Assembly: GCA_950295325.1 (NCBI GenBank)
Contig: OX485805.1
Span: 41,564,758 to 41,628,757 of the forward strand
Reading direction: 5' to 3'
From: Polytrichum commune
Lineage: Eukaryota; Streptophyta; Polytrichopsida; Polytrichales; Polytrichaceae
Length of the DNA: 64,000 nucleotides
Made by a program: the position numbers and the translations under genes. Under the pieces are notes generated by a model. It had not been told where the DNA came from. It made no database searches and worked only from the letters and a program-made list of their open reading frames with translations. Below are positions 8,592 to 57,923 of the stretch, piece by piece (positions within the stretch are counted from its first letter, which is position 1; every line of letters starts with the position of its first letter).

Positions 8592-9080
8592 TTACAGGTG
8601 CTTGTTGAAAAATTCATAGTACACCACTTGAGTGCTCCCCATAACAAGGAATCCCGGAATTAAAGAAGAATTATGCTCATGTGAAACCTGGTCCCACGAA
8701 ACACAACCAAGAAGTTGTGTGTGCATAATTTTATGATCTCTGCACAGTGTGGAACGATCAAACTCAAATCTCCGAATCTTCCTTGTGTGTTTGCCAAGCC
8801 TGGACACCACAATCCGATCAGATTCCAGTGAAGAATGTGAATTTGCCATTGTCCCTTTGACCCTACACGATCGAGCGTCTGAGATCTCTCTTAAAACTCT
8901 CCAATGTGAGTCCTTCCTGTTCACATTCTTATTGCATGTCACTCCATGATCCGCTCTGGGTGAATTACGATACCGCTCTGAGCACCAAACAATTGTGGTT
9001 AAACTCCGACTTTGTGAGTCTCTTCCAATTGTAGAATCTGGTATCAAGAGACCATCATTCAATCGTTGAGCACCAAACAA
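8592..9080 (-). CDS. Unrecognised 162-codon open frame running into a minisatellite
   Basis: This is the longest intact frame in the first 20 kb that I cannot assign to a known element. The translated product is basic, with segments such as RIVVSRLGKHTRKIRRFEFD and CVSWDQVSHEHNSSLIPGFL. Its N-terminal ~30 codons lie inside the first unit of the 87-88 bp minisatellite that follows. The start is uncertain, and there is no domain or homologue I recognise. It could be an exon or gag-like fragment of a retroelement, or a chance frame. Local base composition is less AT-rich than the flanks, which mildly favours coding origin. Confidence 0.25.
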   Translation of the reverse strand: MFGAQRLNDGLLIPDSTIGRDSQSRSLTTIVWCSERYRNSPRADHGVTCNKNVNRKDSHWRVLREISDARSCRVKGTMANSHSSLESDRIVVSRLGKHTRKIRRFEFDRSTLCRDHKIMHTQLLGCVSWDQVSHEHNSSLIPGFLVMGSTQVVYYEFFNKHL

Positions 9081-9955
9081 TTGTGGTTAAACTCTGACTT
9101 CATGAGTCTCTTCCAATCGTAGAATTTGGTATCAAGAGACCATCATTCATTCGTTAAGCACCGAACAATTGTGGTTAACTCTGACTTAGTGAGTTTCTTC
9201 CAATCGTGGAATCTGGTATCAAGAGACCATAATTCAATCGTTGAGCACCAAACAATTGTGGTTAACTCCGACTTCGTGAGTCTCTTCCAATTGTAGAATC
9301 TGGTACCAAGAGACCATCATTCATTCGTTAAGCACAGAACAATTGTGATCAACTCCAACTTTGTAAGTCTCTTCCAATCGTATAATCTGGTACCAAGAGA
9401 CCATCATTCATTCGTGTAGCACGAAACGATTGTGGTTAACTCCGACTTCATGAGTCTCTTCCGGCCAATCGTATAATTTGGTATCAAAAGACCACCATTC
9501 AATCGTTAACCACCAAACAATTTGTGGTTAACTCCGACTTTGTGAGTCTCTTACAATCATAGAATCTGGTATCAAGAGACCATCATTCAATCGTTGAGCA
9601 CCAAACAATTGTGGTTAACTCCGATTTCATGAGTCTCTTCCAATTGTAGAAGCTGGTACCAAGAGACCATCATTCGTTCATTAAGCACCGAACAATTGTG
9701 GTCAATTCCGACTTTGTGAGTTTCTTCCAATCGTAGAATCTGGTATCAAGAGACCATCATTCATTCATTAAGCACCAAACAATTGTGGTTAACTCCGACT
9801 TCGTGAGTCTCTTCCAATCGTAGAATCTGATACCAAGAGACCATCATTCGTTCATTAAGCACCGAACAATTGTGGTCAACTCCAACTTTGTAAGTCTCTT
9901 CCAATCGTAGAATCTGGTACCAAGAGACCATCATTCGTTCGTGTAGCACCAAGTT
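8970..9955. repeat. Minisatellite, about 11 units of 87-88 bp
   Basis: Each unit reads approximately AGCACCAAACAATTGTGGTT, AACTCCGACTTCGTGAGTCT, CTTCCAATCGTAGAATCTGG, TATCAAGAGACCATCATTCA plus a short link. Unit starts fall near 8975, 9066, 9156, 9244, 9332, 9419, 9510, 9596, 9684, 9770 and 9858, with a partial one at 9945. Units differ by point changes and 1-3 bp indels. On the minus strand several consecutive units stay open as a 29-residue repeat (WYQILRLEET(H/Y)EVGV(N/D)HN...). Confidence 0.95.
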
Positions 9956-19000: not shown

Positions 19001-20790
19001 GTTGATATGTTGGCTATGTTACATAGTATGTGTGGCACAATAAAATTGAAGGTACCTACACCAAATAGGGTCATCAGTTCTGACCCTTTGGATAGAGCGA
19101 GTTGTTACATTGACTTGTAGTTTCAAGTTACTAAGATAAAGTCAATTTTGTTTTTTGACATGTGGAGACATGTGGAGACATGTGGAACCATGTGAGTGTT
19201 TTTTTTTAATTTAATGAAATTATTTATTTTCTCTAATAGTACCATAATGAAAGCAAGTATTATAGATATTTATGAAGTGGTTGAGAAGTTAGTGTCAATC
19301 ACACTATTGACCCTCTTAGTGTAGTACCCTAGTAGTAACCCTAGTGCATCAATCATTTTGAAATTATTGAAAAATATGACAACATGCCAAATCTTGGAGA
19401 CATGACAATGAGATATCTAGAAAATCAAATCGGTGACCTAGGAGGAACAAACTAGCTGATATATCATGGTACCTCTATAGTCATCTATACGAAACATTGC
19501 ATATTTCAAATACCATTATGAACTACACTAAGTAATCATATTGGTGTGCATGGAAAAGTAAGATGGAAATAATTAATGTGGGCCACTCTAATAATTTTAA
19601 GGTCAAGGTTGAAGTAACAGTGGTCTTCCTTGGGACTTTTGACCAACACCTTATGGAAAAATAAATGAGTCACTTTGAATCAAAAGCAGTATAAAATCAA
19701 ATGCTCACCCAAATCAATTTATAGAAAGGAATCAATGTAGTCAAAAGTAATCTCAAAGTAAGTGTTTTGTGTGTCCTTTCATGGTTGTAATACTTGGTGC
19801 ACAACAAGACTTAGGAAAACCCCCTTTACACTAGAGCACAAGTTCAAAGTTTAAACTTGAAAATTTTGGAAGTTGATAGTTGGAATGGACAAGTTGTCAT
19901 CCAAATTAAGCTCAAACACTTGAGACATTGAGCAAATTATCATGCTCTCAATAATTTGAGCAAGTGACTAAGTGTACAATGACCCACCTCAAAATGAGAT
20001 ATAAAAGAGGGGGGGGGGGGGGTTTGCACAACACTAAATATAGAAAGTTATGACAAGTCAAAGAATGCATGAAAGCCCATCATCGTTGGACCCATAAAAA
20101 GAGTTCCAACTCTCGCCATTTTAAGCAACCTCCATGTCAAGGTAGGTAAGGATTTTGAAAGAGAACCTACCATAGTCATTCCAGATGGGATTCAAGGGAT
20201 TCAAGGCACTAGGGATCTAACCATTGTAAGTTGCATCAAAAGTTCAAGCTCTCTAGTTGAAACCTCAAGTGTAAAATGGACTTGAGTGAACAAACATGCA
20301 TAAAGGGCTCCTTGCCAATGAGAATGCTTAATTTTTGAGCTCTCAGCCTCTCTAGTGTAAAGGATTCCAATAATGAAATTGAATATTCTATTAATTAGCA
20401 ACCAAAGCCAGCAAGGCAACACCAAAAACAAGCAACCTAAAAGACATGTGAGCATGAGCTATGGGCCATCATGGCAACTTTATTTAAATACAACCCAAAA
20501 GTAGATCTAAGCCTTCGGAAGGTTTCCTTGTTATCAACTCTAATACCACGTACATGAACGTACAACAGTACACGGCGGTTGTTGCTAGCGCTGCAAGCTA
20601 GGGATGTCGTCACCACATGATGGCAACGATGACAACAAAGAAGCGATGGACTAGCAACCAACCTTGCAGGTCCCAATGTAGTTGGTGCAAACACCTCTTA
20701 TGCGGATGACGCTACACCTCCTTTGGCAACACCAACGAAGATGTCTTCCTCCAACATTGTCATCTGAGATATGTTAAGGGGTCTCTAGTG
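19001..20790. other. Non-coding stretch with family D repeat copy 2 and a G run
   Basis: The G homopolymer is at about 20010-20022. Bases 20040-20350 are the second copy of family D. There is no recognisable protein-coding segment. Confidence 0.5.
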
Positions 20791-20799
20791 CCATGAAGA

Positions 20800-21268
20800 T
20801 GACAATCATCTTGAAACTCACAATTAATCTCCCGCTCCTCCTCGTGATGATCCACCGCTAGTTGTTGAGCATTAAAGTAGTGCATTTTGCAACATCAGAA
20901 TTGGTATTAAAGAAGACATTGAAGATTGTCTCACATGCAACGGAATGATCAATTGCATGCCTCAAATATATTGAGGCTTCCATGACAATTGCAATGGGAG
21001 TTGTTGATATAGATGTTAGACTTGAGAACTTGAGGAAGTTCATAGAGGAGGATTGTATGCATGTTTGTGCTCGGTGGAGAGGGGTGGTGCATTGACGCAC
21101 AAGCATTTTCAATTGGTCATGAAGGAGAATTTTAATAGTTTATTAGTGTTGAACAAAAAAATCAAGGTTTGTTTGGGTTGGGATTTGAATCGTCTAACTT
21201 GTCATGTTGTTTCATGCAAAGAATTGAGAGATGAAAGTGAGAGCCATGCTACATACAAATGGAATACA
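20800..21268 (+). pseudogene. Decayed frame with HUH/Rep-like motif (possible rolling-circle-type transposon gene)
   Basis: Bases 20877-21055 read VVHFATSELVLKKTLKIVSH...LKYIEASMTIAMGVV and LRKFIEEDC in one frame, with TGA at about 20943. From about 21053 the next frame continues with CSVERGGALTHKHFQLVMK, then SLLVLNKKIKVCLGWD, HVVSCKELRDES. The His-x-His-hydrophobic-Gln arrangement after an ERGG turn resembles the metal-binding HUH motif of Rep-type endonucleases. From memory I associate the string ERGG...H.H.Q...KKIK..LGW with transposon-encoded proteins of plants and oomycetes, possibly Replitron-like; this is unverified. One frameshift and one stop make it a relic. No terminal repeats were located. 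Confidence 0.45.
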
Positions 21269-23127
21269 TAATTATAGAGGTCACAAAAACTACACGAAAA
21301 CAATGTTGGAGTGCAACGTCCCTGTTGCAGACCAAACACGAAGAGGCGGCTAGCACTGAGCAACACCTACCATATCCACTTAAAAAATATTTTCTATAGT
21401 GATAGTCAGACTTGCAGTACAATGAAACCTTGACCTTCAAACTGGCATTCCACTGCATGCCCCCCTCCCCCCCTAATTAATTTATTAAAAAAAAAAAAAA
21501 ACAAGTACTCCAAAGCAAACCTTAATTATTACCCAATTTATTCATACATTAGAGTTATCCGTAAAGTTTTTGTCATTTGGATAAAACTTCATGTGAATTG
21601 ACTGAAAGGTGAGTTTTAGAACGCATCCATAAAATCATCCAAAGTTTCTAAAGGTTTAAATTAACATGCTGAAAGAATGGTGTTGGATTTAAAAATAATA
21701 ACAATTGGCTTTCTAGCTTGTCATACTAGGATGGGTAGGTTAGCCTTGCATAGGCCAAACTGGGATTTAGGGTGGTAGGTCTCCCGGACAAACCCTATTT
21801 TAGACCCTTATATTCTCTCAAAGTTTTTCGCGTTGAAACATAAGGTCCAAGGAGTTTCACCCATCTTTAAAAATTAGACTTCAACACAAGACAAGCTAAC
21901 AAACTCGTATTAGAAAAGTCTCTCAAAGGGCAATTTATTGTGGCGCAATGTGAAATCGTCTGCATAAATCATCCATGATGCAAATACACAGCTTAGGATT
22001 TCAAAGTCAATATACAGTAACACGAGCAAAAAAAAGCAATCATGTAATTAGTTTAACCAAGTTGTCATCTTCTTGTGGTCTCCACTATTGGCAATGCAGA
22101 CTGTTGTAGGAAGATTAGTGGCCCACACTAGATTATAATCACATTGTTAAGGAGTCAAGACTACTTCATTTTCTTTTTTTGAGACATACCAATCAGCCAA
22201 CGCCAGGAATGAACTACACCAAAGAAAAGAACGCTCCCACTTAGAGGGGAGGCCAGTAGTGAACACAAAAGGGAAGACCTATATATTAAATGAAGAAATC
22301 ACCAAACATGCACTTCCAATAACCATAACTTGAACCAGGGGAGGCCTGATTTTGCCTAATGCTTCATCATAGATTTGATAATGCAGCAAGTTTCATTATG
22401 TATATCTAATCTAATCAGTAGAAGTTGCAGAACATGAAAAACAAACCAAATGACATCCACAAACCTTAATTGATGACTCTCATCTCCAAGTCTGAGGATT
22501 GCAGTCAAGGAACAGAGAGGGTGGTGTTGGCCTATCATCTGCAAAGAGCTCCAGACAGAAGTAGCAATAACGCAGAGTATAAGTGATGGGGAAGCCACCT
22601 GTAGTCAAACGTCCATATCCTCCACAGCTTGTCAACATCAAAAGCAGCTCAGATTGGAGTTCCCGGTAAAAGGCATTCCTCTGGGAATGGAATTCGAGTT
22701 CAATGAACCAACATGAGAAAGTGCTTAGAATGGCAGACCAAAGGAGTATAGCTCAGCCCAACACCAAGACCAGAAAAAGTCACTGCAAGGCTCCAAAATA
22801 CTGAGTATATACGAATAACCAGAGTCCCTCGATTTTGCACACAATAATGTGAACAGGAATCAAAATTGGAAAACTAGACCATTGGGCTATTTATCAAAAC
22901 CATCAGCTTTGCTGATAACATACCAATTTGTTTGGGAAACTCAACATGCTAGAGACATGACTTGCCTCAGAGCGGAAGCTTTTTGCATCCAAAGATTCTT
23001 CCGGGTGGACTATCTACATACCTAAAAAGATTAGAAGTGGGGTTTCCTAAGTTTCCAAATCAAGGATCTGGCAAAATGTACAACTGTCTATGCCAAAAAA
23101 ACAGCAGGGTTGGATGTGATTGAAGAG
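21269..23127. other. Region downstream of the host gene; no gene seen
   Basis: Includes a C run at about 21461-21473 and an A run at about 21486-21500. The part nearest 23127 would contain the 3' untranslated region and polyadenylation site of the minus-strand gene, but I cannot place the end. Confidence 0.45.
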
Positions 23128-23201
23128 TTAAAGCATGAGCTTGGCGAAATACTCATCAAAGTCACGGTCAATCGTAGTTGTCCGCATCTCATTTTGAGCA
23201 G
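23128..23201 (-). CDS. Terminal coding exon of the host gene
   Basis: Encodes AQNEMRTTTIDRDFDEYF then AKLML and TAA. It is preceded by a polypyrimidine/TTTGTGCAG acceptor. The two bases at its 5' end complete a codon started by the single base left over at the end of the 992 bp exon, so phase is exact. The compact acidic-aromatic ending looks like a conserved C-terminal motif. Confidence 0.65.
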
Positions 23202-26200
23202 CTGCACAAACAAGACAAAAGACTCTGAGCATCATACAGCATGAGCAAGTTCTTCAAGCATGAAAGTTTGTATATGCAAAAGGATCAAAAAGATTCTCAA
23301 GGGAATGGAATCTCGGTCAAAAAACTGAGACCACAGAATATAAACCTTTAAATGACCCCACTCAGTCTTGATATTTGAGATATTTCTTATGTCCAGTCAC
23401 AGTATACCTCCTGACAAGCTATCAGTTCCACCAACAGCATATATGCCATCCTAGTGTACATGAGTCGCAACTACACTATACATCTGATTTAGTGTGGCCC
23501 ACACAGTTCTTCATTTACCCGCAATAATTGTTTTTCAATCACCAGGTCCCAACTAGAGAGGGTTTCCATAGACATTCTAATTGTCCATTCTAATTAACAT
23601 GACACATCAAATTTCATGCCATCCTAATTCAATTATTTAGTGCACCCACTCCAACTAAGATACTAATCTATTTATCACTGCAGAGGCGTGAAAATCCTAA
23701 AGCATTGGAACCTAGAATGCACATCCCAATCCACTTCAAAGATCACCTGTGAAAATAGCTAATCTCATGACAGTATATGAGGCCTCAACTCGAAGTAACC
23801 GTGGCATTCAAAACTTCGATTGAACAAAGAGCTGAGTGACAGCATACCTTCCACCTGACGCACTCGGCCTGATGAAAGAACAAACTTCTGGTGCAGATCA
23901 TGACTACGAAGTTTGTGAATCTCTTGTTCCATCCGAACAGTCGAAAACGGGGAGCGACGAAGCCCCCGCAATTTATCTGTCAAAAGGATCCTCTCCTCCT
24001 CGTCACTCGTAGATTTACTGGCCAAGATCACTGAAGTGTTCTTCAGATCAACAATGGGTTGGAACTTCATCCCCTCGCTTGTCTTCATTTTTGATAAAAG
24101 TGTCGAGCTCACTGTGTTGGGTTGTGTGATTCTTGTTGGGTGTCGAGGCTGACTACTTTCTGCATGCGTGCTACTACCTTCAGGGAAACCAGACATGGAG
24201 GCACTGCTTTCCGAGGATCTTCTGCCAATGTTTGCCGGAGGGCCCATGCTTCCATATTCATGTAAAGAGCCAGACAGCGAGTGCTTACTACCACCAGAAC
24301 TACCTCCTGATGAAGACGACTCTAACTTTTGTTTCTCTTTATTAATAAAGGAACCAAGTTGCCAGTTGAGATTACTACTGCCCCCTGGCCACTCGTCTTC
24401 GTCCTTTTTCACTTGTCGTTCCAAATGGTCAAAGGCAGAAACACTCCGATCGGCCCGAAGAAAAGGGTCACAATACTGGAGATGCTGGCTGGAGCCGCCT
24501 TCTTCACTTGACGCAAATGTGCTCGTAGCGTGACCTCCACTACATTCATCATCGCCATTGTTATCATGGTCCGTGCTCCAGCCACTTGTGTTGTATCCTT
24601 TGGCAGCTCCAGGCGCCTCACCAAAAGTGCCTTGGTCATCAAACATGTGGTGGTGCCTTTGAGGGGATAGAACAGCATACTTTGTTGACTGCATCATAAG
24701 GGAACTCTTCCCTGGAATAGCCGCAGATATGGAGTTTGACATCGAGTCAGAGGATGCCCCACTATACTCAGGGAGGAGTGCATGTTTATTCCGTTTGTTT
24801 TGATCTAGATTAAGGTTCACATCTTTTCCAGCTGAGGCCCTGCACATGCCAGAATCATCCCACTTAGAACAACATCACAAAACCTCTAAGAAGACAGCTT
24901 GATATAGCAAGCCAGAATAAGAAAGCATTTGATACATTCATTGAGGTTTCAAAACAATCAACAAATAGCTCAGCAACAGGGCCTGTGTTGGAGAGTGTTA
25001 GAGTCTAGGCACACTATACGTTCCATGCCGATAACTGAACAGGAAGAATGGCATTTAACTGATACATAGGACAAATCACCAACGACCAAAAAGCATGATC
25101 TCATGACATGGTGAGACCAGATTCCCCTAGCCTGGTTATAGTGAAGAGGCATTTACACATCACAAGGTTAGATGAGACATTAGAAACAGCATTCACATCA
25201 ATAAATTCTCAAATTCTGTCAAGCCTTAATTTGTCAACTACTTGCACCAAGACACATCACTCCAGATGATGCAGCATTACATGATGCAAAGTAACTAGCA
25301 ACAAAAGACAGAGATACCAAGGACCCATCTAAGACCAACATCCAGGGGAAAACTTGTTGCATGCTATGCAATCAGGTGCCAAAATTCAAGAGCAACAGAA
25401 AGTGCCTCTTTGCAAGCTCCTGCACAAGGAAGTCAAGGACCATCTACAGGTTCCCCTGACAAAATCACCTTTCAAGTATCAAAGGTCAAACATCATCAAC
25501 ACTTGCAGAGGAAGGTAACCAGTAAACCATAAAGTGAGAGTCAAGAGAGATGGTTAATCCAAAGCATTTCGAGGTACATACTCCATAGAAAGCAATCAAA
25601 AGAAAGAAATCCAAAACTAGAATGAAATAAGTAACAAGTTACACACGCAGCAATAGCCATATGGTGGCAAGCCATCCCAACAAACCATCTACATAGTAGA
25701 AGCCATCTTCCACTACATCCCCATTGATGGGACTTAATGAGCTCCCATCGTAGATCATCCTTGTCTATGAGTTTCTGCTACTCATCTCCAGAGGAAAGGG
25801 GAAGACTCAAGCAAATTGTTGTATTACATGTGCAATAAGAGCGTCTCCATTCATGGACCCGCAAACAGGACTCTACCATTGGCCACGTGATATGCCCCAC
25901 CCAGAAGCCCTTGTATGTATTTAATTATGTCATTGTCCACCAATTATATTATAGATGCAATCTCTCGGCTCACCAAGTATTGTGAGTCAAAGGGATCTGA
26001 AAGGGCCTTTATGATACAATCGGTAGGCAATAAAAAATTTGGAATATAATTAGACTTTAAAGGTGGGACGTAACATGCAGTCTTGCCTTGACAGACCGAT
26101 GAAAGCCAAAGGTAGAGGCTTGTTTGCGGCTCCATAAGTGGAGATGCTCTCGGACCTTGATTTTGTTAACAGACGGAAACCAGGAAAGGTATAGACAAAT

Positions 26201-29729: not shown

Positions 29730-30012
29730 TGTAGAAGTCAATGAGACTACAAATTAGATTGCACAAGCATATACACATACACAAAGGCATATGCACAAAT
29801 GCTTGGAGTGAGATGGTCTCACGCTCTCCTTGCTTTGCCTTTTATTGTTTTTCTTCTCTTCTTTGTTCATATAAACAATATGGGATAATTCTTATTCCTC
29901 TTTGGATTAAAGTTGTGGCCTTATTCTAACCTTATTATTTCTCATGTTTCTTCCATCGCAATTATATTTATTACAAGCAATATAGTGCTCTACCTTCTAT
30001 ACTTCTACTTTA
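29730..30012 (-). repeat. 3' LTR of the copia element
   Basis: Begins TGTAGAAGTCAATGAG on the plus strand and aligns in blocks with 34788-35018. It is about 50 bp longer than the other LTR. The exact inner edge is uncertain. Confidence 0.65.
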
Positions 30013-30061
30013 CAAGTAGTCAAAGGCTTCTAAACCCATTGTATTTGTTAATGCTTGATGC

Positions 30062-30568
30062 CTATCCTTTGCAAGTGTTTTGGTTAGTATGTCCGCTATC
30101 ACATCCTCCGTTGGACAATACTTCAAACATATCTCTTGGTTTTCTAGTTTCTCTCAAAATGAAGTGATGTTGTACATTTATATGCTTGGTGTGAGAATGA
30201 TGTGTGAGATTATTTGCAAATGTTATGCATCTTTGATTGTCGCACATGATGGATGTCGGCCCTTCTTCCACGTATCCCACATCCGCCAAAAGTTGCCTAA
30301 GCCAAACTGATTCCTTTGTGCAATGGCTAGTAGCCATGTACACGCCTCCATCATAAACAATGCAATGGTTGGTTGTTTTTTGTAGTTTCACAACATAACT
30401 CCAATGCCCACAAGAAATACATTCGTCGTGGTGGATCACCGGCCATTTGCATCTTCGATCCAATCCGCATTGCAAAATCTTCTTAATGCAATATCCTTGC
30501 CTCCGGGGCATAATTTGAAGGCCAAAATCCCCTTCAAATACCTCATAATGCGTTACACAACCATCCAA
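30062..30568 (-). pseudogene. Copia RNase H domain
   Basis: Conserved copia RNase H blocks: GGVYMATSHCTKESVWLRQL, LADVGYVEEGPTSIMCDNQR and the TKHINVQHHFI motif near the C-terminus. The normal first block (SGYVF.. with SKKQ) is altered to VVKLQKTTNHCIVYDGGVYM. Frame intact for 168 codons, then lost. Confidence 0.85.
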
Positions 30569-30599
30569 TGAGATGGACCAACCTTCACAATAAATTGAC

Positions 30600-31473
30600 T
30601 CACCATACTCATCACAAATGCAAGATTGGCCCTTATAGCCACCATTGCATACATGAAAGATCTTACCCTAGCCTTGTATGCAACACCTTTCATTTTCCTT
30701 TACGTATTCGCAAATTCATCATCCAGAAGTTTTAACAATTTCAAATTTGCATTGAACGGAGTTTCGACCGGTTTGCATTATTTCATATTGAAACGCTTGA
30801 GGACCTCCTTGATGTAACTCATTTGGTTCATGGTGATGGTACGAGTTTTTTTCTTTTTCTTAGATTCCACTCCTAGATAATAATGCAACTCTCCGAGATT
30901 GCTCATCTCAAATTCCTACTCAAACTCCAATTTGAGCCACTTCAATTGGATTACATTGTTTGTCAATATGATTAAATTGTCACGTAAAGGATTGCCACCA
31001 ACAAATTCTCATTTGTTTCATTGATGTACAATGAATGATCCATTTGGCTCCTACCAAAACCCTCATTGATCACGGACGAGACGATACAATGGTACCACGC
31101 TCTCGGTGATTGCTTGAGCCCGTAAAAAGCTTTCTTGAATTTACATACAAAATACTTCTTCCCATCTTATACAAACCCCTTTAATTGATCCATGTAGATC
31201 TCCACCTCCGATATTCCATTTAAAAACGATATTTTTAAGTTCATTTGGTGAATCTCTCAATTTCATGGCCGTTCTTATTGTGAGAATGCATCTAATGGTG
31301 ATGAACTTGGCCACGGGAATAAATGTCTTGTTAAAATTCACTCTGGCCACTTGAGAATATTTCTTTGCTACTAACCACGTCTTATGCCTAACAATTTTAC
31401 CTGATGCATCCCTCTTGCTGCAGAACACACATTTGCACCCTGCAGTCTTGCGATCTTTTGAAACGTTCGTCAA
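30600..31473 (-). pseudogene. Copia reverse transcriptase domain, fragmented
   Basis: The N-terminal part (31141-31473) reads GCKCVFCSKRDASGKIVRHK, TWLVAKKYSQVARVNFNKTF and IPVAKFITIRCIL. These match the copia RT entry block GCKWVFKIK...ARLVAKGYTQ. The remainder down to about 30600 is recognisable only in pieces across frames. The catalytic YxDD box is not intact in any frame I could follow. Confidence 0.75.
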
Positions 31474-31879
31474 TTCTTATGTATCATTGGCCATAAGTGA
31501 GTCATATTCCTTCCGCATTATGGCCTCCCACTTGCTCGCATCTTCGGATCTCAACGTTTTGTACGAATTCAAAGGAAAATTAAAAAATGCCACATTGGCC
31601 CATTCTTCGCCGTGTTGGGTAGAATGTGATTATTCCACCACTTTGTATATGAACGCCATTTCTTTTTAGGATATCTTCCATTTTCACTGAATCTCTCAAC
31701 GCGATTGTCATTTCATAGGATTTTTCAATTATTTCTTCGTTTGCAACTAAGTGATCTCCCCCAAGTTTCTTCACCGAGTTTCCCACTGTCATCACACGAA
31801 GATGACTTGGAAAATTCGTCTATAACAACCATCGTACAACCTTTATTTCCATGGTATTAAGAAGCAAATGCTACCCCAT

Positions 31880-32843
31880 ATAGGCTTTAATAAAACATAG
31901 TGGCGGAGCGTGCACATTGTATAACCTCAAATGCCTTGGAAATGAACTTCCCGCCATTGTCGTACCAAAATGCCTTGATTTGGAGTTCCAATTGTGTCTT
32001 TCTAAGCGCCTTGAACTTCTTGTATCTTTCAAAGCCTTCTTTTTTTGGATTTCAATACATACAACTACATATTCTTCAATAAATTATTAATGAAGGCCAT
32101 GAAATACTTGCACTGTCCATGACTGTGGTCTTCATCGACTATTTGTCATAATACAAAATTTTCATAAGTTTGGTTGCTCATCTCTTCCCTCATTAAAAAA
32201 TACAACCATGTGTTGTGTATCTTTAATGAGGCACCACGGGCCTTGGCTTGGTGGTTAGGGCTCATGGCCCCCAATGAGGAGGTTGTGGGTTCTATTCCCC
32301 ATGCCGGCGTGGTGCTCACCACCTTAGTCCACCCAACTATGGTGGGGGGTCCTTGGACCTTGTTGTATGGGTACCTCAAAGCCCTTTGGGGGGATACCAT
32401 GTCTGGTATCTTCAAGGCACTAGTGGCTAGCTAGGAACTAGTATAGTGTGTCACTATAGTGTCCATCCTCGAAAGGGGAGAGTAGTATTGTCCCAATGTC
32501 CCCTTGTCCAGTGGGCATCGGGTCATTGGCATTACGAACGGACACTTCATTCACGCCAGCCCCTTGCTAAAAAGGGACCGGAGTTTCTATCTATCTATCT
32601 ATCTTTAATGCACGCTTTGGAAAGCAATGAGGATGTCGGACAAGAAAATTTGCCAAGATTCATATCACTTTCCATGTTCTGGAGCATATGAACACCTTTC
32701 ACATCCAAATGGCCGAGGTGGCAGTGCCAAAACTCGAGCGCACCACAATCTGTTGGAGATTGCACCAAGTTGGCCGCATCCGCTCCATACACCTTTGTAC
32801 AAATTGTCTTTGCGTAGCGCAATTGCAATGGCTTGAACATCAA
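31880..32843 (-). pseudogene. Copia GAG-pre-integrase and integrase, split by a SINE
   Basis: At 32595-32843 the GAG-pre-integrase signature EFWHCHLGHLDVKGVHMLQN is clear (His/His of the zinc-binding region). The SINE then interrupts the frame. On its far side, about 31890-31990 reads AFWYDNGGKFISKAFEVI, the integrase D-N-G-G-E/K-F block. The frames are not continuous. Confidence 0.75.
32229..32599 (+). mobile_element. Full-length tRNA-derived SINE inserted in the copia element
   Basis: The head carries an A box (TTGGCTTGGTGGTTAGGGC) and a B box (GGTTCTATTCC) spaced as in tRNA genes. The tail is a (TATC)n run. Both sides show the same 11 bp duplication TATCTTTAATG (32218-32228 and 32600-32610), the hallmark of target-primed insertion. 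The body is about 371 bp. The perfect duplication means the insertion is recent compared with the decayed copia host. Confidence 0.9.
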
Positions 32844-33006
32844 AATTTTACAAAGAATTTGTTTAGATTGAATTGCACTTTCAAAACATTCGACACAAGT
32901 TTGCTCACTAAGAGCAAATTGGCTTACAACTAGGGCATGTGAAGCGCATCATTGATATAAATTCAATTTATTTTACCTCTCACAATTGCCTCCACGATGA
33001 TAAAGC

Positions 33007-33210
33007 TCATTCCGATGGTTTTACAACAACATCATCATCCAAATGCACACTGCATAAAGTAATTTCCTCATACATTTTGAATGCGACCCTGTACGAAATC
33101 ATGTGTTTGGTGGTTCCTGAATCTATCATCCATTGACACATGCTTTTGAAACGTGTCTCATTACGAATTACAAATATATAGACGTCATCATCTTTCACAT
33201 TTTTTTGCAT
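33007..33210 (-). pseudogene. Copia aspartic protease fragment
   Basis: CQWMIDSGTTKHMISYRVAF contains the protease active-site DSG triad in the usual copia context (W.(L/I/V)DSG.(S/T).H). It lies between gag and integrase as expected. Confidence 0.8.
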
Positions 33211-33238
33211 TTTGGCGTTCTTTGTTCTTTATTTTGTA

Positions 33239-33916
33239 CTAATAGAGGCACGATCTTTTGTCTTGGCGCGGAAATGAGTTGTCGCCTTTGCATTGTTGCA
33301 AAATCATGGCAACATTTTCACCTTGGAGCTCTTTCTCCTTATACTTTGATATCGCGTGCATCAAACATGTCATCGCATAATGCATTGCACGATGCATTGT
33401 AAGTTCCTTCGTCAATATCGTTTCCAAGGCGGTGATCAAATAGTCATACGACGCTGACAAACTCTACAGTAAAGTCATGATGATGTATTCATCTCTCATA
33501 GATACCTCCAAACAGACAAATTCATTGACAATGCATGGTCCAACAAGTCATCGTCTTCTTATATATTGCACATGAGGAACTTGCAGCGGACAAAAAAAAT
33601 GTTGGACAAACTCTTCGTCTCGTGAATGTTGCAAAGGGTTTTCTATGCCTCCGCAGAACCTTTGCAATTATTGATGTATGCAAATTGGTCATCTGCCAAT
33701 TTGCACCTTTGTATATGGTATTCTTGATGCGCCTTTAATATTCCTTAAACACTTTGTCATCCACATTGAAAGGTGAAGCTTCATAGGATCCATCACAATG
33801 TCCCAAAGATCCATAATTGCCAATAACGTTTTGATTTTGAACTTCCAAAGGTTGATGTTCCCTCCATTGAACTTGTTAATGACTCTAACGGCCCCGCTCT
33901 CAAATGATGTCATCAT
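33239..33916 (-). pseudogene. Copia gag, fragmented
   Basis: The N-terminal piece (33689-33916) reads NKFNGGNINLWKFKIKTLLA then IMDLWDIVMDP, the typical copia gag start. The C-terminal piece (33239-33460) has YDYLITALETILTKELT and the run towards a zinc knuckle. Frameshifts and stops separate the pieces. Confidence 0.8.
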
Positions 33917-34787
33917 ACGTTTACATATACTCTCAAAACACTAAACTAACATTTTTTGGCCTACAATCAAACCCAACCTAATCCAAATTGAAAGATAACA
34001 CCTTACACTTAGAATACGCATTTGCACCTCAATGTAGTGGAAACATGTTCATATCCTCTCAAATGGGCATCTTGGTCTCTAGAATGTGTTTTTTACCTTA
34101 AACCATTCAAATCACTCAAATCGTTCAAAAATTATCTTCTTCACATCAAATATATTAAGTTAGATCTTCTACACCTCAAGGGACATGAAGACACTTAAGT
34201 AACTCAAATAAAATTTGTTTACCTCAAATGTGTCTTATACTTTCAAATAATCTCAAGTGAAATCTTCTACATCTCAACACACTTAAAAAATATTTCTTTC
34301 AACTCAAAATACCTTGAATGGTTTCAAACAAGCCTTACAACACTCAAGCCTCACAAATAAACCTCAAACCACTTAAAATACTCAAGTTTTGGGCTTTTGA
34401 AGTCTAAACACCTCCAAACCTATCAAATAAACTCTATAACACTTAAGCCTCTCAAGTCATGTGCTCTTGGAGTTTAAACACCTTCAAAGCTCGCAAACAT
34501 GCCCTTAAACTCTCAAAACACTCAAGTCAAATTCTTTTGAAGTCTAAACATCTTCAAACCTCTCATATATGCCTTTTAACACTCAAGACACTCAAGACAC
34601 TCAAGTCACATGTTCTTGCATCAAACATACATTCAAGCAAAAACGAAAGACAAAAAACACCTATAATAACCAAATGCACCCTCGGACACCTCCAACGCTC
34701 CAAAGCGCCAACTACTCAAGATCCCCTCCGTAACCTCAAAGCAATCAAATATCTAGACTCTTCACTTGCATGCGTAGGCCCATAACC
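33917..34787 (-). other. Copia leader region, strongly strand-biased and internally repetitive
   Basis: Between gag and the 5' LTR the plus strand is poor in G and built from imperfect repeats of ACTCAAG, ACCTCAAA and CACTTAA words, most regular at 34080-34620. No conserved frame. The 108-codon plus-strand frame at 34459 is low-complexity and unlikely to be real. Confidence 0.6.
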
Positions 34788-37987: not shown

Positions 37988-37991
37988 CTTA

Positions 37992-39790
37992 GGGCCACTT
38001 TATACTTGGGGCCGGATTGAGGGCCGGCCGGAACTCTGAAAAGTTGAACCAATAGGATCGCTCGATTTCATCAAATCGGGCCCAAGGGCTTTATACTTGA
38101 GGCCGGCCCGAACACTCACCTATCCCATGTGGCGTCTTTGGTGGCACAATTTTGGCGCCAAACCATCGGGCCCTAGATGAGATTTCGGGACAAGCTTTTC
38201 CTCGTCCCGAACTCCCATCTAGGGCCGGATGGGGCTCCTCCGTTGGATTGTTCCAATCTTGTCCGTCAATCAATAGGAGGGGTTAAAACATTTCCTCTCC
38301 TCCTTACTACTCTCCCCTCCACCTTCCCCTTCTCTTCTCTCCCCTCCACCTTCCTCTCATCGCTTCTCTACTCCTCTCCCTTCCACCTTCCTCTCCGAAG
38401 CCTCTCTGAAACACTTTGTGCGTCGCTCAAATCGCAATTTTGTCACGTGGGTGAGATCCGTGAGTTGCAGGTGCGTCCTTCGAAACCCCCTCTTGCTGCT
38501 TCTTCACTACATACTCAACTTGTGAAAAAAATCTGTATTTCCAAGAATTTCTGTATCTCCAAGAATATTGTTCGCCTTCTTCTACCACACCCCTAATTTG
38601 TACTCTCTTAATTCTCACAAACAGCAGTAGTTCATGGGAGGGGCGAGTTCCAGAATAAAATCAAATATTGGCTTTTTTTTTTTAGATACAACTTGGCCGC
38701 TTGACAGTCTTCTCTGTCTTCAAAATGTGGTGAATTCCAAGCCTTCTACCACACCCCTAATTTCGACTCTCTTAATTCTCACAAACAACAGTAGTTCATG
38801 GGAGGAGCGAGTTCCACAATAAAATCAAATATTGGCTTTTTCATTTTAGAAACAACTTGGCCGCGAGACAGTCTTCTCTGTCTTTGAAATAAGCTGAATT
38901 CCAGATTGGATGATATTTAGTGTTTGATTTTACATTTAATGTTACTTACTTTCATAGGGTTAGTGATATTTAGTCTAGTGATTGTATTTATAGTATCTCA
39001 CACTAAATATCATGTTTAGTGTAGTGACTCCACAATTTTAACTATAACAAACACATTCCAAAAATAAGCCAAAGATAGTTTCCAAGTGGAACCATGCTCA
39101 AAAGTTTACACGCACTTAGATCCAACAATAATGTAAACTTATACTATGGTTAGAATTATTATTTTTTAAATAAAATCTCTTATCTATAAAGAGAAAGTTA
39201 ATTGAGGCTTTAGAAAGGTTGATTAAGTCTATAAATTTATGTAGCTTGAAAAATAAAAAGCACGACAACAATGTTGGCGCAATGCCTACTTACAATCAGT
39301 AACCCACACCAAAATATATGCTCAATGTCGTCATGTTCCCGAACGGAACGAAGCCAATTAATATCTACAAACATAGATTACTCTATAATGAATATTGTAT
39401 CATTGCAACTTTGGTTTTCTTTTTGTTACCGGGTACATCGGTTATTCCATTGTACATGGTGGGTGAATTTATATGAGCATTTTGACACCGGAATTAGATT
39501 CAAAGGGCTCGATATAGTCTAATGGGACCCAAGGTTGACCCCTTAACGATAAGCCTATGGAGATCATCCCCCATAGTAAAACCCGTGTAACTAATGCTCA
39601 AGAGCACTGGGCATTGACCACGGTAAGTTCCATGAAACTTAACCCTCAAGACCATCGGGCCCTAGAATCGGGCCTCACCACTTTACATGCGACAAGGTTG
39701 GGCCGGAAAAAAGTTCATAAAGTGCGTCCCGATTGAGGCCTCAATCGGGCCGGTGCTCCGGCCGGCCCCAGGCCGTGTATAAAGTGGCCC
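37992..39790. mobile_element. H2: non-autonomous TIR element, PIF/Harbinger-like (TTA target duplication)
   Basis: The left end GGGCCACTTTATACTTGGGG and the complement of the right end, GGGCCACTTTATACACGGCC, are inverted repeats with GGCCGGCCGG blocks further in. TTA flanks both sides (37989-37991 and 39791-39793). The outer parts are nearly identical to H4 (56532-57920). The interior 38340-38905 is different from H4 and contains a 164 bp tandem duplication. Open frames inside (for example 38177-38596) are shared by the copies only where the DNA is shared and show no protein features. Confidence 0.85.
38577..38905. repeat. 164 bp tandem duplication inside H2
   Basis: CTACCACACCCCTAATTT starts at 38582 and 38746. 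Both copies run through TCTTAATTCTCACAAACA, GTAGTTCATGGGAGG, AAAATCAAATATTGGC and GACAGTCTTCTCTGTCTT. Neither copy is present in H4. Confidence 0.9.
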
Positions 39791-39793
39791 TTA

Positions 39794-55880: not shown

Positions 55881-56531
55881 ACATGCCTTTCTTTTCACTT
55901 ATTCAAGATTTTGTACTAAGAAATGATTTCTAATAACTTTTCATACACTTTTTTAAACAATTAGTGCCGATATGAATTCCATTTAATTGGATATTGGCCA
56001 ATGAAAATATGAAAATATAGGCAATTGGCCGATTGATTTTACAAAAGACCGGCTGTTGCCGATGTAAATTGGAAAAAATCCGACCGTTCGTAGCAACTAC
56101 CGGCAATTAGCCACTAAGGCTTCAAAAACTTCCCGAATTCTGATGCAAACTCTCTTATTTTATCTGTTAATTAAAAGACGCCTCTTCCTTAATTCCCTCT
56201 CTCCTCCAAATTGTGCATGGGGTTGGAAGTGGCTCCTTGTGGCTTCGATCCAAATCGGTGTCAGTCAACTTGCTAAAACCACGCTTTGTTGTCGCACTTT
56301 CATGATGTGGACTGCACATGAGAATGATAGTTGTCCACCTCCTCCAAATTGCCAAATGACACACACAATTTGACTTACATATATATATATCTGATTTTCT
56401 CCCCCGGAATAACTCAAAGTCTTCGAAATCACATCACATCTGACCAATTTAATCCACTAATAGATTTTCTGCAACCTGGCACTGAGGTCCCTTTTTAAAG
56501 TAAGGCAACATGTGCAGCTTGTGGCCCTTAA

Positions 56532-57920
56532 GGGCCACTTTATAGTTGGGGCCGGATTGAGGGCCGGCCGGAACTCTCAAAATTTTAACCAATAGGATCG
56601 CTCGATTTCATCAAATCAGGCCCAAGGGCTTTATACTTGGGGCCGGCCCGAACACTCACCTATCCCATGTGGCGTCTTAGGTGGCACAATTTTGGCGCCA
56701 AACCATCGGGCCCTAGATGAGATTTCGGGACGAGCTTTACCTCGTCCCGAACTCCCATCTAGGGCCGGATGGGGCTCCTCCGTTGGATTGTTCCAATCTT
56801 GTCCGTCAATCAATAGGAGGGGTGAAAGCATTTCCTCTCCTCCTTACTACTCTCCCCTCCACCTTCCCCTTCTCACCTTCCACCTTCCCCTTAATTATTT
56901 TTTCATAGAATTAGTGTTAGACATAAATGCGCCACCACCTTCCCTACTACCATGTCCCTTCTGTTTTTCTCATTGTTAATTTTTTTTCATATCCTTCCTA
57001 ACACTAAATTCGTGCATGTAACTTTCACATATTACCATGGATGATGTTTAGTGTTTGATTTTACATTTAATATTACTTACTTTCATAGGGTTAGTGATAT
57101 TTAGTCTAGTGATTGTATTTATAGTATCTCACACTAAATATCATGTTTAGTGTAGTGACTCCACAATTTTAACCATAACAAACACATTCCAAAAATAAGC
57201 CAAAGATAGTTTCCAAGTGGAACCATGCTCAAAAGTTTACACGCACTTAGATCCAACAATAATGTAAACTTATACTATGGTTAGAATTATTATTTTTTAA
57301 ATAAAATCTCTTATCTATAAAGAGAGTTAATTGAGGCTTTAGAAAGGTTGATTAAGTCTATAAATTTATGTAGCTTGAAAAATAAAAAGCACGACAACAA
57401 TGTTGGCGCAATGCCTACTTACAATCAGTAACCCGCACCAAAATATATGCTCAATGTCGTCATGTTCCCGAACAGAACGAAGCCAATTAATATCTACAAA
57501 CATAGATTATTCTATAATGAATATTGTATCATTGCAACTCTGGTTTTTTTTTTGTTACCGGGTACATCGGTTATTCCATTGTACATGGTAGGTGAATTTA
57601 TATGAGCATTTTGACACCGGAATTTAGATTCAAAGGGCTCGATATAGTCTAATGGGACCCAAGGTTGACCCCCTAACCATAAGCCTATAGAGATCATCCC
57701 CCATAGTAAAAGCCGTGTAACTAATGCTCAAGAGCACCGGGCATTGACCACGGTAAGTTCCATGAAACTTAACCCTCAGGACCATCGGGCCCTAGAATCG
57801 GGCCTCACCACTTTACATGCGACAAGGTTGGGCCGGAAAAAAGTTCATAAAGTGCGTCCCGATTGAGGCCTCAATCGGGCCGGTGCTCCGGCCGGCCCCA
57901 GGCCGTGTATAAAGTGGCCC
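56532..57920. mobile_element. H4: non-autonomous TIR element, close relative of H2 (TAA target duplication)
   Basis: It shares both ends with H2 almost base for base (GGGCCACTTTATAGTTGGGG on the left; complement of the right end GGGCCACTTTATACACGGCC). The flanking duplication is TAA (56529-56531, 57921-57923), different from the TTA of H2, so the two are independent insertions. Bases 56877-57040 replace the 38340-38905 segment of H2. The 57046-57920 part parallels 38906-39790 with few differences. No transposase. Confidence 0.85.
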
Positions 57921-57923
57921 TAA

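What the first reader, a model, noticed from the sequence alone, without database searches (positions are those of the whole stretch)
20800..21300. HUH/Rep-like endonuclease motif in a decayed plant frame
A VERGGALTHKHFQ segment followed by LNKKIKVCLGWD reads like a Rep-type HUH catalytic core rather than any common plant transposase. Upstream coding (LRKFIEEDC) joins it after one shift. If correct, this is a relic of a rolling-circle-like or Replitron-like element, a class little described in plants, and intact relatives may exist elsewhere in this genome.
Basis: partly seen in the sequence, partly recalled or inferred. Interest (0 to 1): 0.7.

Follow-up and report, generated by a model that had tools for sequence, protein, structure and literature searches.

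The report
Dead fragment of a Replitron transposon
A short stretch of plant-like DNA looks like the broken remains of the enzyme gene of a Replitron, a recently described type of jumping gene already reported from algae, mosses and ferns, so it is a worn-out member of a known kind rather than something new.

Summary
The 81-aa open frame at 21026-21268 (+) carries VERGGALTHKHFQ...LNKKIKVCLGWD; LRKFIEEDC lies upstream in another frame. The reading is right in kind. The one Pfam model listed is PF21859 Replitron_HUH, weakly: E 0.024, 15.4 bits, cut-off 28.5. Detectable homology covers about 21030-21235, about half of the HUH domain. The motif reads H-K-H, not H-hydrophobic-H; the catalytic-tyrosine region is not detectable, nor a Replitron_C domain in 20000-23300, nor a second copy in the window. 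It is most likely a dead, truncated pseudogene. [quoted passage not shown] No genome is held and I could not identify the host, so whether the known range is extended is open. A fossil member of a known kind; low interest unless the host is a seed plant.

The parts
21030..21056 (+). LRKFIEEDC: upstream piece of the decayed HUH domain, in a different frame from the rest
   Evidence: The upstream piece (ten residues, LRKFIEEDCM) adds 3.6 bits to the anchored Pfam score (51.7 against 48.1 with it masked). Adding it to the free-standing query did not raise the score (13.9 and 15.1 against 15.4).
21056..21235 (+). Main HUH-domain relic (YACLCSVERGG ... CKELRDE); free Pfam match covers profile 28-74 of PF21859
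   Evidence: PF21859.2 E 0.024, 15.4 bits, residues 11-53 of the frame, profile 28-74/128; anchored test 51.7 bits against 25.8 masked; tblastn with a recalled family protein 50% over 60 columns (possibly circular).
21098..21106 (+). H-K-H, counterpart of the HUH metal-binding motif, with lysine where a hydrophobic residue is expected
   Evidence: Direct reading; definition of HUH from a passage of PMC13231165.
21236..21271 (+). End of the open frame (stop at 21269-21271), without detectable homology; the catalytic-Tyr region is not found here
   Evidence: Downstream frameshift-tolerant alignment (21226-22300) scored 28, below the best of 20 shuffles (34).

Best explanation
The segment is a decayed, truncated pseudogene of the HUH endonuclease of a Replitron, a eukaryotic DNA transposon. 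When intact, such an enzyme is expected to nick one DNA strand with an HUH metal site and a catalytic tyrosine, and to move the element through a single-stranded or replicative intermediate (inferred from the HUH superfamily, not shown here). What remains detectable is about half of the catalytic domain, split by one change of frame, with the HUH motif reading HKH and the frame ending before the tyrosine region (shown). That it makes no working enzyme and has no present function is inferred from this.
For: PF21859 Replitron_HUH is the only Pfam family listed at E<=10 for the 81-aa frame, in a library of 24,736 models (filters drop most matches above about 0.1). PHROGs listed only unknown-function families (best E 0.093) and NCBIfam none. 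Anchored test: relic 51.7 bits; masked 25.8; 4 full shuffles 26.6-30.9; 10 motif-keeping shuffles 30.0-44.1; the recalled family protein itself 57.3. Masking the motif in the relic leaves 31.0 and the motif alone between masked letters gives 27.0, so both are needed together. In free-standing scans 0 of 7 shuffled decoys matched PF21859.
Against: The free-standing match is below Pfam's cut-off. Matches of similar E that I take for chance occur: 0.035, 0.087 and 0.089 among 10 other window ORFs, and an 18-bit match to PF21859 itself in 1 of 101 prokaryote genomes. The match was not listed for the full-length frames, for two sub-fragments of 37 and 52 aa or for a 123-aa joined reading (third protein). 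One of the 10 motif-keeping shuffles came within 7.6 bits. HKH is not a strict HUH. No tyrosine region, C-terminal domain or element ends were found. No real relative was recovered in the searches made.
Confidence: 0.87

Rival explanations
1. Chance: a random open frame in plant DNA that happens to read like an HUH motif.
For: The free Pfam match is only E 0.024; matches near E 0.03-0.09 to unrelated families occur in 3 of 10 other window ORFs and one in a shuffled decoy (0.08). H.H and frames of this length are common in the window.
Confidence: 0.07
2. Relic of another HUH system: Helitron, an integrated virus Rep, or a plasmid Rep.
For: These share the H-x-H nickase core (established knowledge). 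The best PDB match of the recalled family protein is an entry named Rep, but only at E 0.47.
Against: No Helitron, viral-Rep or plasmid-Rep Pfam model was listed for the frame at E<=10, within HMMER's filters; no match of the DNA in plasmids or of the frame in phages.
Confidence: 0.05
3. Remnant of a host gene that had domesticated a Replitron HUH domain.
For: It lies about 2.5 kb from a 369-aa open frame on the other strand (23768-24874).
Against: The domain is truncated and frameshifted; the nearby frame has no Pfam match at E<=0.1 and nothing links the two.
Confidence: 0.01

Closest known systems
Replitrons (Craig 2023 PNAS, not held; known here through a passage of the review PMC10741241; Pfam PF21859 Replitron_HUH and PF21860 Replitron_C)
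   Same: Profile match over the HUH core: profile 28-74 free, and aligned from about profile 19 onward when anchored.
   Different: Frameshifted; HKH in place of H-hydrophobic-H; no tyrosine region and no C-terminal domain detected; no direct terminal repeats or target-site duplications shown.
Helitrons
   Same: Eukaryotic HUH transposases.
   Different: No Helitron Pfam model was listed for the frame, and no Pfam family at all in the six frames of 20000-23300 (a scan that also lost the Replitron match).

Membership tests
Replitron | HUH endonuclease domain of the Replitron type (PF21859) | tested here: inconclusive
   E 0.024, 15.4 bits, below the 28.5 cut-off; the anchored decoy test is in favour.
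Replitron | Intact H-hydrophobic-H motif | tested here: not met
   Reads HKH at 21098-21106. Expected of a decayed copy; it bears on activity, not on ancestry.
Replitron | Catalytic tyrosine downstream of HUH | tested here: not met
   The frame stops at 21269 and the free profile match ends at position 74; in the recalled protein the presumed Tyr (residue 109) falls at about profile 98 by the coordinates. Downstream alignment is not above shuffles, 28 against a best of 34 in 20.
Replitron | Replitron_C domain (PF21860) | tested here: not met
   Six frames of 20000-23300 with stops as X: 0 Pfam families in 6 of 6. The same scan also lost the HUH match, so its sensitivity is limited.
Replitron | Short direct terminal repeats (5-11 bp) and 2-8 bp target-site duplications (as given in the passage) | not testable with these tools
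   Needs intact copies or empty sites; no genome is held. Repeats this short cannot be told from chance in one decayed copy; the repeat search had a minimum of 14 bases and does not address them.
Helitron | Helitron Rep/helicase domains | tested here: not met
   Not among the Pfam matches, within HMMER's filters.

The most novel reading that the evidence does not exclude
The window comes from a seed plant, and the relic shows that Replitrons once invaded a lineage from which they are reported absent.
Probability: 0.15. Interest if true: 0.5.

Novelty: new member of a known kind. Interest (0 to 1): 0.2.

Why it matters
It adds one fossil copy to a transposon group described in 2023 and shows that such a relic can be recognised from raw sequence. 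It would matter more only if the host turned out to be a seed plant or hornwort, where the group is reported absent (review passage).

Tried and rejected
Own-genome search for intact copies: no genome is held. Relatives in IMG/VR: with the relic, 7 stretches matched a pattern and none was confirmed; with the recalled protein, no stretch matched. GTDB genomes: 156 stretches matched a pattern, 1 was kept, a 17-residue match in a Lachnospiraceae MAG (L001), which I take for chance. PF21859 in the genome behind L001: 0 of 1; 3 of 14 control genomes ring at E<=10, none over the cut-off. PF21859 in 101 genomes of that phylum at E<=0.01: 1 sub-cut-off match to profile 8-38, outside the HUH core, taken for chance; controls 0 of 14. 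PF21860 in the genome behind L001: 0 of 1; controls ring in 6 of 14, none over the cut-off. Plasmids by DNA, phages with the 81-aa frame, plasmids with the recalled protein: no match at the limits used (E 0.1, 1 and 0.1). PDB: 4 sequences at E 0.31 or worse for the frame and 1 at E 0.47 for part of the recalled protein, none convincing.

Extending the relic up- or downstream with a frameshift-tolerant alignment: scores 23 and 28, not above shuffles (best of 20 each: 31 and 34). A suggestive downstream pairing at 21249-21293 was rejected for that reason.

Second copies of the locus in the window: none by blastn of 20200-22200 (best other match 16 bases, E 0.11) or by tblastn with the recalled protein. 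Host identification: Rfam at gathering thresholds and a tRNA scan gave nothing; 2 of 10 ORFs scanned had a Pfam match over the cut-off, both from a transposase; so the host was left open. I first took the repeated pair near 38 and 56.5 kb for the LTRs of one large element; the ends show two copies of an element with terminal inverted repeats instead.

Full report
Observation. H-x-H and frames of 81 aa are commonplace in this window, so the motif alone proves nothing.

What it is. Pfam lists a single family for the frame, PF21859 Replitron_HUH, at E 0.024 and 15.4 bits, below the 28.5-bit cut-off, covering profile 28-74 of 128. Matches of comparable E to unrelated families turn up in 3 of 10 other ORFs of the window, and an 18-bit match to PF21859 appeared in 1 of 101 prokaryote genomes, so this alone would be weak. 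It was also not listed for 1100-residue frames, for sub-fragments of 37 and 52 aa or for one longer joined reading.

Anchored test. I recalled from memory a plant Replitron-like protein; it matches PF21859 (9.9e-15) and PF21860 Replitron_C (2e-11), so the recalled letters behave as a two-domain Replitron protein. Keeping only its flanks, I replaced residues 30-98 by the relic and scored 140-aa versions against Pfam. Relic 51.7 bits; relic with the upstream piece masked 48.1; all 69 residues masked 25.8; four full shuffles 27.5, 26.6, 27.8 and 30.9; recalled original 57.3. Ten shuffles that keep VERGGALTHKHFQ in place scored 33.7 and 44.1 and 35.0, 30.0, 33.5, 39.4, 34.1, 33.5, 30.4 and 32.4. 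The relic exceeds 14 of 14 decoys, the nearest by 7.6 bits. The motif alone between masked letters gives 27.0 and the relic with the motif masked 31.0, so the score needs both together. Pfam, not the recalled letters, scores the relic part. But the flanks are recalled, and the frame junction and register of the relic were chosen by alignment to the recalled protein, a freedom that the shuffles did not have, so the margin is somewhat flattered. The direct tblastn of the recalled protein to this place (E 4e-12, 50% over 60 columns) is reported as a lead only.

Extent and state. Homology runs from about 21030 to 21235 with one change of frame. Beyond it, neither the tyrosine region nor the N-terminal part is detectable, and no Replitron_C was found in the six frames of 20000-23300 (limited sensitivity). 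The motif is HKH, whereas HUH enzymes have a bulky hydrophobic residue between the histidines (passage of PMC13231165). I conclude that this is a dead fragment. No second copy was found in the window.

Known or new. [quoted passage not shown] The primary paper is not held. A search of the held library for words beginning with Replitron found 3 papers. I saw passages of all three: the review, a mention among HUH enzymes (PMC13231165), and a reference-list entry only (PMC13253262). Further searches were seen as listings, partly capped, and added no paper with that word. So I know of no report of Replitrons in seed plants in this library, which lacks most subscription journals.

Host. The source of the window is not known to me: no genome is held, Rfam and tRNA scans gave nothing, and the transposons seen (a pogo/Tc5-type transposase; a Copia relic) do not fix the clade. 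If the host is a fern, lycophyte, moss or liverwort, this is ordinary; if it is a seed plant it would extend the known range.

Noticed in passing
37991-39791 and 56531-57921: Two same-orientation copies (aligned pieces 94.6% and 98.0% identical) of an element with inverted ends GGGCCACTT...AAGTGGCCC, flanked by TTA/TTA and TAA/TAA: looks like a PIF/Harbinger-type element (type recalled, not tested). The first copy holds a tandem duplication of a 164-bp unit.
   Followed up: partly
46-1547: Pogo/Tc5-type transposase in two open frames on the + strand: HTH_Tnp_Tc5 (1e-12) and DDE_1 (1.3e-20).
   Followed up: partly
about 30000-33940, minus strand: Frameshifted Copia retrotransposon relic: RVT_2 at E 2.5e-10 near its low end; the rest of its extent read by eye from the translated frames.
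   Followed up: partly
8981-9952: Tandem array of an 87-bp unit, 11.1 copies, 86% matches.
   Followed up: no
23768-24874, minus strand: 369-aa open frame without a Pfam match at E<=0.1, perhaps an exon of a host gene.
   Followed up: no
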